Origin: Alphaproteobacteria bacterium
Lineage (GTDB): Bacteria; Pseudomonadota; Alphaproteobacteria; Rs-D84; CACZYB01
Assembly (NCBI GenBank): GCA_009785175.1
Contig: WQWV01000001.1
Span: 124,963-163,447 of the forward strand
Direction: 5' to 3'
Length of the DNA: 38,485 nucleotides
Shown here: piece by piece, positions 23,933 to 29,566 of the stretch
Position numbering within the stretch: the stretch's first letter is position 1
Layout: the number at the start of each line of letters is the position of its first letter
The notes under the pieces: generated by a model
Seen by the model: only the letters and a program-made list of their open reading frames with translations
Databases searched by the model: none
What the model was told of the DNA's origin: nothing
Made by a program: the position numbers and the translations under genes

Positions 23933-23941
23933 GGGGGGGGG
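23933..23941 (+). repeat. G9 mononucleotide tract, intergenic
   Basis: tataaaatgcgcGGGGGGGGGtgcgcc, just downstream of a TTGAGG-16 bp-TATAAA promoter-like sequence. Confidence 0.97.
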
Positions 23942-24164: not shown

Positions 24165-24794
24165 TTGATTAATAACGAACTCATCGACATCTACGACGGC
24201 AATCGGAAACATATAGGAGTTGCAGACCGCAAAGTCGCGCACACCTTCGCGCTTTGGCATAAAACGGTTCATTGCTGGATAGTCCTGTCGGACGGGCGCC
24301 TAGTCTTCCAACGCCGCGGCCCTGCCGCCACAAGTCCAGGCAAGTTATACACCACCGCCTCGGGCCACCTCTCGGCCGGCGATACTATTGAACAGGCCTT
24401 CGCGCGCGAGGTCAAAGAAGAGGTCGGCATCAAAATAGACATCGCCTCCGCCCGCGAAATCTTCAATACCGTATGGGTCGCCGACATCAAGTATCCCGAC
24501 GGTTCGCCGTTCAACGATAGGGCGTTCGCATACGGATACGCAGCCCGTTATGACGGCAAGCTGACCGATTTCAAATTCCAAGACGGCGAAGTCGACGCGG
24601 TTGCCGCGATTGATCCAAAAGCATACCTAAGGCTTGCGAACGGCGAAGTCGCAAAAATCCCCGCCAAGCTTTTCGACGGCAAAACGACCAGGGAAATAGA
24701 ATTGACCTCCGCCGACTTCTGTCTTGTCGGCGCGGATACGTTGTATTCCAAATTCGGGACTGTTTGCGAAGCTGTGATGAGGGTCTTCGCCTAG
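24165..24794 (+). CDS. NUDIX hydrolase (IPP-isomerase-like Nudix subgroup)
   Basis: ASGHLSAGDTIEQAFAREVKEEVGIKI Nudix box; TTG start. Confidence 0.87.
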   Translation: MINNELIDIYDGNRKHIGVADRKVAHTFALWHKTVHCWIVLSDGRLVFQRRGPAATSPGKLYTTASGHLSAGDTIEQAFAREVKEEVGIKIDIASAREIFNTVWVADIKYPDGSPFNDRAFAYGYAARYDGKLTDFKFQDGEVDAVAAIDPKAYLRLANGEVAKIPAKLFDGKTTREIELTSADFCLVGADTLYSKFGTVCEAVMRVFA

Positions 24795-25255
24795 TTCTTG
24801 CTGATGTTTGTTGAGATGGCCTTGACAAGGGCCGCCCAGCGCGGATCGTCCTCGCCCATTTTGTTTTGCCTTAACCTTATGCTTTTCGTATTCGGTATGT
24901 TGTATTTGATTACGGTATTGCCGCCGGCGCCCTTGTCTATGGTAAAGTTCGGTATATTCTCTTCGCGTATTATGCACGGAATATTTTTCATGACCTCTCC
25001 GGCCTCTTCTTCGATATTCGCGACCTGCGTGCAGTTGGGAAACATCGTGGCAAGGCGCCGCGCGTCGGGGACGAAGTTCACGCCCTGTCCGGCCTGCGCA
25101 CAGTTGTCGAAGTTCGGGCATGATCCGCTGGCGCATTCAAGGTCGCGTCGGAATAGCCGCTCGACGCTACGGCTTGTTTCTATCACCCGAAACGAGAAGG
25201 TTGTGGTTTTATCCTTTGTAAAGAAGTTTTTGCGCCCGGGTATATACATTCTCAT
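24791..25255 (-). CDS. Cys-rich uncharacterised protein, paralogue of 25282..25761
   Basis: DLECASGSCPNFDNC...RRLATMFPNCTQVANIEE; start trimmed to MRMYIPGRKN. Confidence 0.7.
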   Translation of the reverse strand: MRMYIPGRKNFFTKDKTTTFSFRVIETSRSVERLFRRDLECASGSCPNFDNCAQAGQGVNFVPDARRLATMFPNCTQVANIEEEAGEVMKNIPCIIREENIPNFTIDKGAGGNTVIKYNIPNTKSIRLRQNKMGEDDPRWAALVKAISTNISKN

Positions 25256-25281: not shown

Positions 25282-25761
25282 CTAGGATCCCTTGATTAAA
25301 ATATTTTCCCGGAAAGCTTTCAAAAGCGCCGTATATCGCTTGTCCTGATAGCAATCGCCTTTGCTCACATTGTTGTTGTGGCTTTTAGAATTCATTATGA
25401 AATATACAAGAGAAATATAATCTTGCCTGTTGTCGATTATAAGTTGCGGGATATCGACGTCGTTTAAGTTTAATTCTCCGATGGCCAAGGCCGCGGTATC
25501 TTCTATTTCGGCAAGCTGTTTGCAATCGGGAAACATCGTGGCAAGGTCGCGCCCGGCCTCGGGCTTAAATCTTGTGCTCTTCGTTGTGCAGGTATCGAAT
25601 CTTGGGCAGGATTCTTTGGTGCATTTAAGGTCTATCCTGGTTTCCCGTTCGATGCTTGTGCTAAGCTCTTTTATTACCAAGGCGACAGTTGCCACCGGCT
25701 TGCCCAAGTGAAAATTTACGCGGGATCTTTCGCCGCTTCCGGTTTTGACTTTCATCCGCAT
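25282..25761 (-). CDS. Cys-rich uncharacterised protein, paralogue of 24791..25255
   Basis: DLKCTKESCPRFDTC...RDLATMFPDCKQLAEIED. Confidence 0.7.
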   Translation of the reverse strand: MRMKVKTGSGERSRVNFHLGKPVATVALVIKELSTSIERETRIDLKCTKESCPRFDTCTTKSTRFKPEAGRDLATMFPDCKQLAEIEDTAALAIGELNLNDVDIPQLIIDNRQDYISLVYFIMNSKSHNNNVSKGDCYQDKRYTALLKAFRENILIKGS

Positions 25762-25791
25762 GGTATGCGCCCTTTCATACCCCTCGACCGG

Positions 25792-25822
25792 ATTATAGAC
25801 AGAACGGGGGGGGGTATGTCAA
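25792..25822 (-). promoter_or_regulatory. Sigma70-type promoter with a C9/G9 tract in its spacer
   Basis: Reverse strand TTGACA(25822-25817)-taCCCCCCCCCgttctgtc (19 bp)-TATAAT(25797-25792), 30 bp upstream of the ATG at 25761. Confidence 0.8.
25806..25814 (+). repeat. G9 tract (C9 on the transcribed gene's sense strand) in promoter spacer
   Basis: agaacGGGGGGGGGtatgtc. Confidence 0.97.
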
Positions 25823-25826
25823 GCTT

Positions 25827-27413
25827 TTATTGTATAAATTCCTTTATAGTATTTATCAAAAGCGTGGTAGACGGATCATGCGCGCCGACCGTGCCTGCAA
25901 GCTCCTTTTCAATTCCCATGGCAAGCTTTTTACCAAGCTCGACACCGAACTGATCGAACGCGTTTATACCCATAAGGAGCGCCGTCGCATACGTCCTATG
26001 TTCGTATAAAGCGATCAGCATTCCAAGCGTTTTCGGGGTCAGTTTCCGCATAAGGATCGTGTTGCTCGGCCTGTCGCCTACGAACGTTCTGAAAGCGGCG
26101 TTTGGTTCGGTTTCAGCCGGCTTTTGCCCGATCATAAGCGCTTCGGCCTGTGCCACCATATTTGCCAGAAGCTTGCGCTGCGACCTGGTGTCTCCAGTCG
26201 AAGAAATCACCGGCGCGATAAAGTCGCACGCGATTTTTTTACTCCCCTGGTGAAGCATTTGGTAAAAGCTGTGCTGGCCACAGGTGCCTTCTTGTCCGAA
26301 AAGCAAAGGCGAAGTCGCGAAGTCAATCGGCTCTCCGTCCGCGCCCACCGACTTGCCCAAACTTTCCATGACAAGCTGTTGCAGATACGCGGGCAATAAC
26401 GCAAGCTCTGTGGAATACGGGAGCACCGCCAAATCCCCAATATTCAAAAATTCTATGTTCCATAGGTCAACCAAAGCCATTACAACAGGCAGGTTTTTCT
26501 CGAACGGAGTATCCGCAAAATGCCTATCCACCACCGCCGCGCCGGCAAGTAGTTCCAAAAAGTTTTTCTCTCCAATAGCGATAAGCAAAGGCAGCCCTAC
26601 CGGCCCCCACATGCTATAGCGCCCGCCGACATAATCTCCGAACCCGAACACGTTTGCGCTCAACAATCCGAAGTCGTTAGCCGCCGGCACGTTGGACGAT
26701 GCGGCGACGAAATGTGCGCCAACCGCCTCGACGCCAAGACGTTCTACAAGCCATTCCCGGCACACTGCCGCGTTGGTAAGCGTTTCGTCCGTAGTCCACG
26801 ACTTCGAATTGACGATAAACAAAGTCGTCTCCGCGTCAAGCCGCTTCAAAACCCGCTCGGCCGACACCGGGTCAACGTTTGCGATAAAGTGGAAATTGAT
26901 AAGCGGCGTTTTGAATTTATCAAGCGCGCGTATGGCCATTTTTGGACCAAGATACGAGCCGCCGATACCGATATTCACCACGTCCATAATCCGCTTGCCG
27001 GTATATCCGGTGGTCATGCCGTTCCGAACTCCCTCGGCCAGCTTGCACATCGCATTCAACGTGTCGCGTATACCAAGGGATATGTTGACGCCGTCGACAT
27101 GGAAGTCCTTGTCAAGATTACGCAAGGCGGTGTGCAGCACGGCACGCTTTTCGGTAGAGTTTATTTTACGGCCATTTAGCATGTCCTGCACGCCCTTCTT
27201 GATGTCGACCTCTTCGGCCATGCGGCATAGAAGCTCGAGCGCCCGCTTATCGATTTTATTTTTGGAAAAATCGATGATAAAATCGTCAAGCGTAAGCACT
27301 AACTTGTCCATGCGGTCGGCTTCGGCCGCGAACAAATCGGCTGTGCGCTGATCGGTCAAAAGCTCGTGGTGCTTTTTGAGTTTAAGGAACGCGTCGGTCT
27401 TGGTATAGTTCAT
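25827..27413 (-). CDS. pgi: Glucose-6-phosphate isomerase
   Basis: VVNIGIGGSYLGPKMAIRAL, FIVNSKSWTTDETLTNA, GGRYSMWGPVGLP, GQEGTCGQHSFYQMLHQGSK. Confidence 0.97.
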   Translation of the reverse strand: MNYTKTDAFLKLKKHHELLTDQRTADLFAAEADRMDKLVLTLDDFIIDFSKNKIDKRALELLCRMAEEVDIKKGVQDMLNGRKINSTEKRAVLHTALRNLDKDFHVDGVNISLGIRDTLNAMCKLAEGVRNGMTTGYTGKRIMDVVNIGIGGSYLGPKMAIRALDKFKTPLINFHFIANVDPVSAERVLKRLDAETTLFIVNSKSWTTDETLTNAAVCREWLVERLGVEAVGAHFVAASSNVPAANDFGLLSANVFGFGDYVGGRYSMWGPVGLPLLIAIGEKNFLELLAGAAVVDRHFADTPFEKNLPVVMALVDLWNIEFLNIGDLAVLPYSTELALLPAYLQQLVMESLGKSVGADGEPIDFATSPLLFGQEGTCGQHSFYQMLHQGSKKIACDFIAPVISSTGDTRSQRKLLANMVAQAEALMIGQKPAETEPNAAFRTFVGDRPSNTILMRKLTPKTLGMLIALYEHRTYATALLMGINAFDQFGVELGKKLAMGIEKELAGTVGAHDPSTTLLINTIKEFIQ

Positions 27414-27559: not shown

Positions 27560-28486
27560 TCATAAACCAAGCGCGTGGCGCCCATCACGCGAAAACCCGT
27601 CCGCATCGCGCTGGGGCAGTTGGAATAACGATCCCAGCCGTAGCTCGGCTTCTTCCGTATTATAACGCTCCCACCCGGCATGATTGGAAAATGTCATCTC
27701 CGAGAACATGATATCGTCGTTAGCAAGTTCGTAAAAATCGACCCGCACATGGTTTATGCCGGCCGCCAGCTTTTCGGCCAGCTCTATCATTAAATCTAAT
27801 TTTTTAGGTTTCGGCGCCACAGGCGCAAGAGGAGAGCTTATCTGCTGAAATCCGGCATCGCCCCAATCGCGCGAATAATATCGTTCGCCCATGCTTTGTT
27901 TTGCGCCGAACGAGTGCTGCCATGAGGCGGTGCGAATGAATTCTACCCGTCCGTTAAAACACATCATCATAACCTCTATATCTGTGCGTATGTCAAGAAG
28001 CTCGCGCGCTATGATCTTTTGCGGGATAAGCGAGTAATGCATTTCTCCGTCCGCACGCCCGTATACATGGCCAAGCCAGCCGGACATTACCCGTGCGGCT
28101 TCGCCCTTATCAAGCCTTGACTTACCCCCCCCCACGACTATATTGCGGCCCGAGCTGGCGTTGTGCTGTAGTATGAATCTTTCAGGAAGCGCGTCCCAAT
28201 CTATGTCTTCCGGCTTGTCGTATGCGCCGTATATCGCCGGCAGATATTGCTCGCCTATTTTATCGGCCACGTATTCGCGAACGGCAAGCTTGTCTGTGCA
28301 TTTGCATTTAAGCAAGGTAGGGTCGAACATCATCGCCCAGCGTATTTTGTCGTTGAAGCGGGCAAGCTCTTCGGTCGGTCTCCGTCCTGTTTTGTGAAAA
28401 AATAGATCGGACAGAAGCTCGGCCTTAGCCCTATTGCCCATCTGGTCCCATAGCGTCATTCTGATATTAAGGAACATTTCGTTCAT
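27560..28486 (-). CDS. TupA-like ATP-grasp protein (copy 1), probable surface-polysaccharide modification
   Basis: RFNDKIRWAMMFDPTLLKCKCTDKLAVREYVADKIGEQYLPAIYGAYDKPEDIDWDALPERFILQHNASSGRNIVV...VDFYELANDDIMFSEMTFSNHAGWE. Confidence 0.8.
   Translation of the reverse strand: MNEMFLNIRMTLWDQMGNRAKAELLSDLFFHKTGRRPTEELARFNDKIRWAMMFDPTLLKCKCTDKLAVREYVADKIGEQYLPAIYGAYDKPEDIDWDALPERFILQHNASSGRNIVVGGGKSRLDKGEAARVMSGWLGHVYGRADGEMHYSLIPQKIIARELLDIRTDIEVMMMCFNGRVEFIRTASWQHSFGAKQSMGERYYSRDWGDAGFQQISSPLAPVAPKPKKLDLMIELAEKLAAGINHVRVDFYELANDDIMFSEMTFSNHAGWERYNTEEAELRLGSLFQLPQRDADGFSRDGRHALGL
28125..28133 (+). repeat. C9 tract (G9 on coding strand) inside TupA-like copy 1
   Basis: Encodes VVGGGKSRLD. Confidence 0.97.
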
Positions 28487-28617: not shown

Positions 28618-29566
28618 TTACAAACCAAGCGTCCGCCGTCCCTCCTCCGAAAACCCGTCCGCATCGCGCGGGGGCAGTCGGAACAATAGCCCAAGCTTGT
28701 AATCCGCGCCGACCGGCTCATACACTTCGCCACCCGTCCAGTTATAAAAGGTCATCTCGGCAAACCGAACCTCGCCATTTACCAATTCAAAAAAATCGAC
28801 CCGCACATGGTTGAATCCGGCCGCCAACTTCTCCGCAAGCCCTATCATCAAATCAAGCTTTTCCGGCCGAGGCGTAGACGGCGCAAGCGGCGTGTTCACC
28901 TTCTGAAACCCTGCATCTCCCCATTCGCGCGAGTAATACCTCTCTCCCGCGCACTTCTTGTGCCCCAACGTATGCGAGTATATGACGGTGCGTATATATT
29001 CCACTCGGCCGGCAAAACACATGAAAAGCACTTCCCGGTCGGCGCGGATATCCATCAACTCGCGCGCTATGATTTTCTTCGGCATAAGGCTATAGGCCAT
29101 CTCGCCCTTGTTTCGGCCATAAACCGATCGCGCCCACCGCCGCATAGCGCGCATCGCCGCCCGCTGGTCGAGTTGGCGTCTGTCTTCTACTATTATCTGC
29201 CGCCCGGAACTGGCGTTGCACTGTAAAATAAATTTATTGGGAAGCCCCGCGAAATCGACATCTTCGGGCCGCTCGAACACACCGTATAATTTCGCAAGAT
29301 ACTTTTCCCCGATCCGCTCCGCTACGTATTCCCGCACCGCGAACTTGTCCGCGCACTTGATCTTAAGGGGTGTGTTGTCGAACATCATGGACCAGCGAAT
29401 CTTGTCGTTGAAACACCAAAGCTCGTCGGTGGAACGCTTTCCCGTCTTTTGCCCAAATACGTTTTTAAGAAGCCAAATCTTTAATTTTACGGGCAAATAC
29501 CCCCCCCCATAGGGACATTTTTACGTTTATGACTTCGTTTGCGATCTTGCTTAAAACCTTTGACAT
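28618..29566 (-). pseudogene. TupA-like ATP-grasp protein (copy 2), frame interrupted at a G9 tract: phase-OFF gene or assembly indel
   Basis: SD-led ATG at 29566 gives MSKVLSKIANEVINVKMSLWGG and shifts frame at G9 (29500-29508); the downstream frame PVKLKIWLLKNVFGQKTGKRSTDELWCFNDKIRW... is intact to 28618. Confidence 0.75.
29500..29508 (+). repeat. C9 tract (G9 on coding strand) near the 5' end of TupA-like copy 2
   Basis: gcaaataCCCCCCCCCataggg. Confidence 0.97.

What the first reader, a model, noticed from the sequence alone, without database searches (positions are those of the whole stretch)
25761..25822. C9 tract in the -35/-10 spacer of a near-consensus promoter
Seen: reverse strand TTGACA-[ta C9 gttctgtc, 19 bp]-TATAAT, with the ATG of a Cys-rich protein about 30 bp downstream. 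Both hexamers are perfect consensus and the spacer is 2 bp over the 17-bp optimum, so tract changes of 1-2 bases would retune promoter strength. Established: this is the architecture of phase-variable porA in Neisseria meningitidis. Inference: volume-control phase variation of the Cys-rich pair 25761-24791.
Basis: partly seen in the sequence, partly recalled or inferred. Interest (0 to 1): 0.8.

Follow-up and report, generated by a model that had tools for sequence, protein, structure and literature searches.

The report
C9 tract inside a gene promoter
A run of nine Cs sits between the two RNA-polymerase contact boxes of a promoter; about 55 promoters of this small bacterial genome carry such a run, usually leaving the boxes one or two bases off their best spacing, which fits a genome-wide set of slippery expression switches, though switching itself has not been seen.

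Summary
It lies in the 65-bp gap between pgi and two paralogous proteins of unknown family. The tract is not isolated. The genome (1.14 Mb, 58 contigs) holds 121 exact C9/G9 runs; in 308 kb I counted 45 runs of 8 or more against about 7 expected, peaked at 9. Fifty sites read TTGACA-n-G8..10-TA, all intergenic and nearly all just upstream of a gene; a few more, including this one, have C on the sense strand. Tract-driven genes mostly lack Pfam hits (28/40 versus 4/20 controls). Tract-less promoters use spacers of 16-17 bp (22/27); tract promoters avoid them (5/45; p=2e-9) and sit at 15 or 18-19. The same avoidance of 17 bp appears in unrelated bacteria. In the same genome, tracts inside genes leave some frames broken (an alpha/beta-hydrolase, a TupA-like ATP-grasp). 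Best explanation: slippage-driven (phase-variable) promoter, like porA or tp0126, one of a large transcriptional set whose usual tract length is detuned. Length variation and its effect on expression were not testable here.

The parts
25817..25822 (-). -35 hexamer TTGACA (perfect)
25806..25814 (-). C9 tract in the -35/-10 spacer (G9 on the + strand)
   Evidence: one of 121 exact C9/G9 runs in the genome
25792..25797 (-). -10 hexamer TATAAT (perfect), preceded by TGTC; spacer 19 bp
   Evidence: GTC before the -10 box recurs in tract-less promoters of this genome
25770..25775 (-). Shine-Dalgarno-like AAAGGG, in the loop of a small hairpin GGTATG/CATACC (about 25781-25762)
   Evidence: fold not better than shuffles, z -1.06
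25282..25761 (-). gene 1 of the pair, 159 aa, no Pfam or PHROG match, no relative in 95 related genomes; its only relative is its neighbour
24791..25255 (-). gene 2 of the pair, 154 aa, 38% identical to gene 1, conserved C-x4-C-x5-C plus a later Cys
25827..27413 (-). pgi (phosphoglucose isomerase), upstream gene; its stop codon ends 4 bp before the -35 box
29500..29508 (+). C9 run (G9 on the gene strand) near codon 4 of a TupA-like ATP-grasp gene; frame is broken at G9 (19 + 293 aa would join at G8)
28125..28133 (+). C9 run (G9 on the gene strand) in frame inside the paralogous gene
23933..23941 (+). G9 run in a dispersed intergenic repeat next to a GC hairpin

Best explanation
The C9 run is a slippage-prone (phase-variable) spacer of a sigma-70-type promoter for the two-gene unit 25761-24791. 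Replication slippage adds or removes single C:G pairs, changing the distance between -35 and -10. At C9 the spacer is 19 bp, two above the 17-bp optimum, so the usual state should be weak; C8 and C7 (18 and 17 bp) should raise transcription and C10 lower it. It is one of about 55 promoters of this genome built this way, most of which at nine residues sit just outside the 16-17 bp range of normal promoters, so the default is detuned and rare slipped cells express more. Shown: sequence, architecture, genome-wide recurrence, purity of tracts, gene position, spacer bias, frame-breaking tracts in the same genome. Inferred: slippage rate, direction and size of the expression effect, benefit.
For: Exact promoter with the C9 run in the spacer. 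45 C/G runs of 8 or more in 308 kb against 6.7 expected, lengths 8:3, 9:34, 10:7, 12:1 and none of 7, like Campylobacter poly-G tracts (9: 53%, 10: 26%; PMC6321876). 50 sites TTGACA-n-G8..10-TA, reversed-pattern control 0; all 50 intergenic, usually 30-50 bp before a co-directed gene; C-strand versions too. Runs are pure: 34 exact 9-mers against 16 with one interruption, and 8 against 0 in promoters. Tract promoters at 16-17 bp 5/45, tract-less 22/27, p=2e-9; sister genome 2/14 against 4/4. Downstream genes without Pfam match 28/40 against 4/20, p=3e-4. Coding tracts break frames of otherwise intact genes (relatives). Literature: homopolymers of 8 or more are mostly variable in Neisseria (PMC5084427); in T. 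pallidum tp0126 a poly-G in the spacer gives best transcription at 17 bp, and the tprL poly-G is mostly 9 with 7-11 seen in vivo (PMC7864442).
Against: No reads or second isolate: length variation not seen. Tract length in promoters is very uniform (45/50 are 9), more than in other intergenic tracts (18/30, p=0.004), which could mean stabilising selection rather than switching. In 47 of 47 G-oriented promoters the run touches the -10 box, which a pure spacer model does not need. Many in-gene tracts lie in frame in ordinary metabolic enzymes, where high slippage would be costly. The encoded pair shows no surface signature.
Confidence: 0.7

Rival explanations
1. Fixed structural spacer: the G/C run is stable and simply belongs to a promoter class. 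G-tract DNA is shorter and underwound, so the best spacer length differs and 15 or 18-19 bp is the tuned state.
For: Uniform length 9 in promoters; run touches the -10 in all G-oriented cases; 18-19 bp is the most common class also elsewhere.
Against: Two separated classes (15 and 18) with a gap at 16-17 cannot both be one shifted optimum; tp0126 with a poly-G spacer is best at 17 bp (PMC7864442); interrupted G-rich spacers, which should also do structurally, are absent; coding tracts break frames.
Confidence: 0.15
2. The G9TA (or TAC9) word is a binding site for a regulator or nucleoid protein that controls these promoters; spacing is secondary.
For: G9 is followed by TA beyond promoters too: in coding tracts T at +1 in 17 of 23 and A at +2 in 15 of 23, and TA in 23 of 23 sites of two relatives; fixed contact with the -10 box.
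Against: Single-mismatch versions are not enriched, unlike protein sites; C-oriented promoters carry the word at variable positions and on the other strand; tracts are nearly absent from most relatives.
Confidence: 0.1
3. Mutational by-product: a polymerase or repair bias grows G/C runs to nine anywhere, and promoters tolerate them; no regulatory role.
For: Tracts also occur in dispersed intergenic repeats and inside genes; counts differ sharply between related genomes.
Against: 50 sites follow a perfect TTGACA and all lie between genes, nearly all just upstream of one; a promoter-like frame surrounds random intergenic positions in only 1.6%; strong bias to genes of unknown family and non-random spacer lengths.
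Confidence: 0.05

Closest known systems
porA promoter of Neisseria meningitidis (poly-G in the -35/-10 spacer)
   Same: Homopolymer inside the spacer of a sigma-70 promoter; one-base changes move the spacing around 17 bp (described in PMC7864442).
   Different: Here the run is C on the sense strand, the gene is a pair of unknown family, and about 55 promoters of one 1.14-Mb genome share the design.
tp0126 promoter of Treponema pallidum (poly-G spacer)
   Same: Poly-G between -35 and -10, best expression at 17 bp (PMC7864442).
   Different: The T. pallidum cases described there are a few outer-membrane-protein genes; the genes here are mostly of unknown family.
opc promoter of Neisseria meningitidis (poly-C)
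   Same: Poly-C on the sense strand in the promoter region.
   Different: The opc run spans the -35 region and is thought to act through a regulator (PMC7864442); here both hexamers are intact and flank the run.
Campylobacter poly-G phasome
   Same: G/C runs peaked at 9 and 10, many per genome (PMC6321876).
   Different: There 82% of poly-G tracts are in reading frames and C. jejuni strains have 18-39 phase-variable genes; here 27 of 45 tracts in the unbiased sample are intergenic and about 55 sit in promoters.

Membership tests
Phase-variable promoter with a homopolymer in the -35/-10 spacer (porA/tp0126 type) | Pure homopolymer of 8 or more | tested here: met
   C9; purity statistics
Phase-variable promoter with a homopolymer in the -35/-10 spacer (porA/tp0126 type) | Run lies between recognisable -35 and -10 boxes upstream of a co-directed gene | tested here: met
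   TTGACA-19-TATAAT, ATG 30 bp downstream; genome-wide
Phase-variable promoter with a homopolymer in the -35/-10 spacer (porA/tp0126 type) | Spacer length near 17 bp so that single-base changes retune it | tested here: met
   19 bp here; 15 and 18-19 genome-wide against 16-17 in tract-less promoters
Phase-variable promoter with a homopolymer in the -35/-10 spacer (porA/tp0126 type) | Tract length varies within a population by slippage | not testable with these tools
   No reads or sister isolate held; flank search of viral contigs found nothing
Phase-variable promoter with a homopolymer in the -35/-10 spacer (porA/tp0126 type) | Transcription changes with tract length | not testable with these tools
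   Needs reporter fusions and start-site mapping
Phase-variable promoter with a homopolymer in the -35/-10 spacer (porA/tp0126 type) | Drives a surface or host-interaction gene | tested here: inconclusive
   No Pfam, PHROG or fold match; no signal peptide seen by eye

The most novel reading that the evidence does not exclude
Poly-G/C promoter switches are as a rule stored off-optimum: at the usual tract length the spacer is one or two bases away from the best spacing, so most cells express little and single slips turn individual genes up in rare cells. This genome carries about 55 such switches in front of mostly unique genes, and the same avoidance of 17 bp is seen in poly-G promoters of unrelated bacteria (10 of 103 against 19 of 33 tract-less promoters in the same loci).
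Probability: 0.4. Interest if true: 0.75.

Novelty: new variant of a known kind. Interest (0 to 1): 0.6.

Why it matters
Phase-variable promoters are known mostly one by one, from human pathogens. A small-genome, probably host-associated alphaproteobacterium with dozens of them in front of genes of unknown family would be an extreme case of a transcriptional phasome, and would show which genes such a bacterium varies. The spacer statistics give a simple testable rule, default detuned and one slip from optimal, that can be checked in any metagenome with reads and may flag phase-variable promoters across phyla.

Tried and rejected
Degenerate protein-binding motif: rejected, interrupted runs are not enriched. 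Mismatch-repair loss as the cause: mutS is intact in the sister genome, which also has 106 C9 runs; in this assembly mutS is split over two contig ends, so undecided. Conserved regulon: tract-driven genes of this genome and the sampled ones of its sister are not orthologous apart from one weak match. Identity of the pair: no Pfam, no PHROG, no relative in 95 related genomes; a model of moderate confidence (pLDDT 65) has no fold match below E = 0.001. Leader RNA switch: hairpin not better than shuffles. Length variants of this locus in viral contigs: none. Uptake-sequence idea: considered, set aside because most near relatives have almost no such runs.

Full report
The observation. The minus strand reads TTGACA (25822-25817), TA, nine C (25814-25806), GTTCTGTC, TATAAT (25797-25792), then 30 bases to the ATG at 25761. 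The spacer is 19 bp. The promoter fills the 65-bp gap between the stop of pgi and a pair of paralogous genes, 159 and 154 aa, 38% identical, with a conserved C-x4-C-x5-C motif and one later Cys. Neither protein matches Pfam or PHROGs, and none of 95 related genomes has a relative.

It is not alone. The window has nine C9/G9 runs and no C/G run of 7, 8 or above 9. In 308 kb of the genome, C/G runs fall off steeply to length 6 (16 cases), are absent at 7, then number 3, 34, 7, 0 and 1 at lengths 8 to 12; A/T runs show no second peak. A first-order model expects 6.7 runs of 8 or more; 45 are seen. The whole assembly has 121 exact nines, the sister genome G001 106, two genomes of another genus of the family 22 and 31, most others of the order 0 to 3. 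G001 has a contig of the same length (38817) as JAISGI010000001.1, a 'Rickettsiales bacterium' assembly in which the same sites occur, so the window probably comes from a related host-associated alphaproteobacterium; this naming is inference.

A promoter set. Fifty sites in the assembly read TTGACA-n-G8..10-TA (reversed-pattern control 0). I fetched all of them. All 50 are intergenic and nearly all have the next gene in the same direction, usually 30-50 bp from the tract and often with a visible Shine-Dalgarno sequence. In the unbiased 308 kb, 27 of 45 tracts are intergenic although intergenic DNA is 10% (p=6e-16). In 47 of these promoters, all those with a TAnnnT -10 box, the G run abuts the box directly. 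A smaller group has C on the sense strand, with the run at varying positions: the focus (19 bp), C1:39767 (C12, 19 bp), L206:95 (18), L232:2012 (15), L233:2001 (C11, 16). A promoter-like frame surrounds random intergenic positions in 1.6%.

Spacing. Tract-less TTGACA promoters of the genome use 16-17 bp in 22 of 27 cases; tract promoters do so in 5 of 45 (p=2e-9) and cluster at 15 and 18-19; the sister genome repeats this with 2 of 14 against 4 of 4, on non-orthologous genes. The 15-bp class has better -10 boxes than the 18-bp class (4.6 against 3.8 matches).

Why slippage. Runs are pure: 34 exact nine-mers against 16 carrying one interruption, and in promoters 8 against 0. Tri-glycine codons GGGGGGGGT occur 8 times among 89 where codon use (same call) predicts about 0.2. 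Inside genes some tracts leave frames broken: an alpha/beta-hydrolase (L220:2951; only its downstream part matches the family), a TupA-like ATP-grasp gene in this window (29500), an orphan gene under a tract promoter (L213:2279), and a secreted-protein start (C1:89043). In two relatives six tracts before signal-peptide-like starts are out of frame. Other tracts are in frame in enzymes. Tract-driven genes lack Pfam matches in 28 of 40 cases against 4 of 20 control genes; in G001 8 of 10 have none, the other two only weak ones below cut-off.

Comparison. Spacer homopolymers act as phase switches in porA and tp0126, with 17 bp best; tprL runs are mostly 9 and vary from 7 to 11 in vivo (PMC7864442). 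Neisseria runs of 8 or more are mostly variable (PMC5084427). Campylobacter poly-G peaks at 9 but lies in reading frames in 82% (PMC6321876). The focus meets every sequence criterion of the porA/tp0126 type; variation and expression effect are untested. What is different is the number, the genes and the spacing rule.

Open points. The run touching the -10 box in every G-oriented case, and the TA after G9 also outside promoters, are not explained by spacing alone. The uniform length 9 in promoters (45 of 50) against 18 of 30 in other intergenic tracts could reflect selection on the spacer.

Limits. Gene calls outside the window are from my own script. The assembly is a draft with no reads. The model of the 159-aa protein is of moderate confidence and matches nothing.

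Noticed in passing
window 29500-29508 and 28618-29496: TupA-like ATP-grasp gene whose 5' end is out of frame at a G9 run; a similar gene at 27560-28486 has an in-frame G9 run.
   Followed up: partly
window 23933-23941; L215:1850, L216:2251, L217:931, L218:4825, L231:2871: Dispersed intergenic repeat with a GC hairpin next to a G8-G10 run and a TAGCTATAAATC-like end; several contig ends lie in similar repeats.
   Followed up: partly
G000 contigs C9:1 and C25:1 (L243, L220): mutS is split at its Walker A codons over two contig ends that share the 9 bases ATGGCGGGT; insertion with target duplication or plain assembly break, undecided.
   Followed up: partly
L253, L259, L247, L250, L257 (genomes G005 and G006): G9 runs a few codons after the start of genes with signal-peptide-like starts, several followed by a shared PVNSxxY-like stretch; all six are out of frame at G9.
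   Followed up: partly
L050:15168, L218:3817, L218:4361: Small proteins starting MKC or MRC with spaced Cys, two of them (related to each other) directly behind tract promoters.
   Followed up: no
tracts of G000, G005, G006: G9 is followed by TA in coding and some non-coding tracts as well as in promoters; no reason found.
   Followed up: partly
window 25783-25762: Leader hairpin GGTATG-AAAGGGCG-CATACC with the Shine-Dalgarno in its loop; the GGGGTATG arm could also pair with CATACCCC at the tract in read-through RNA.
   Followed up: partly
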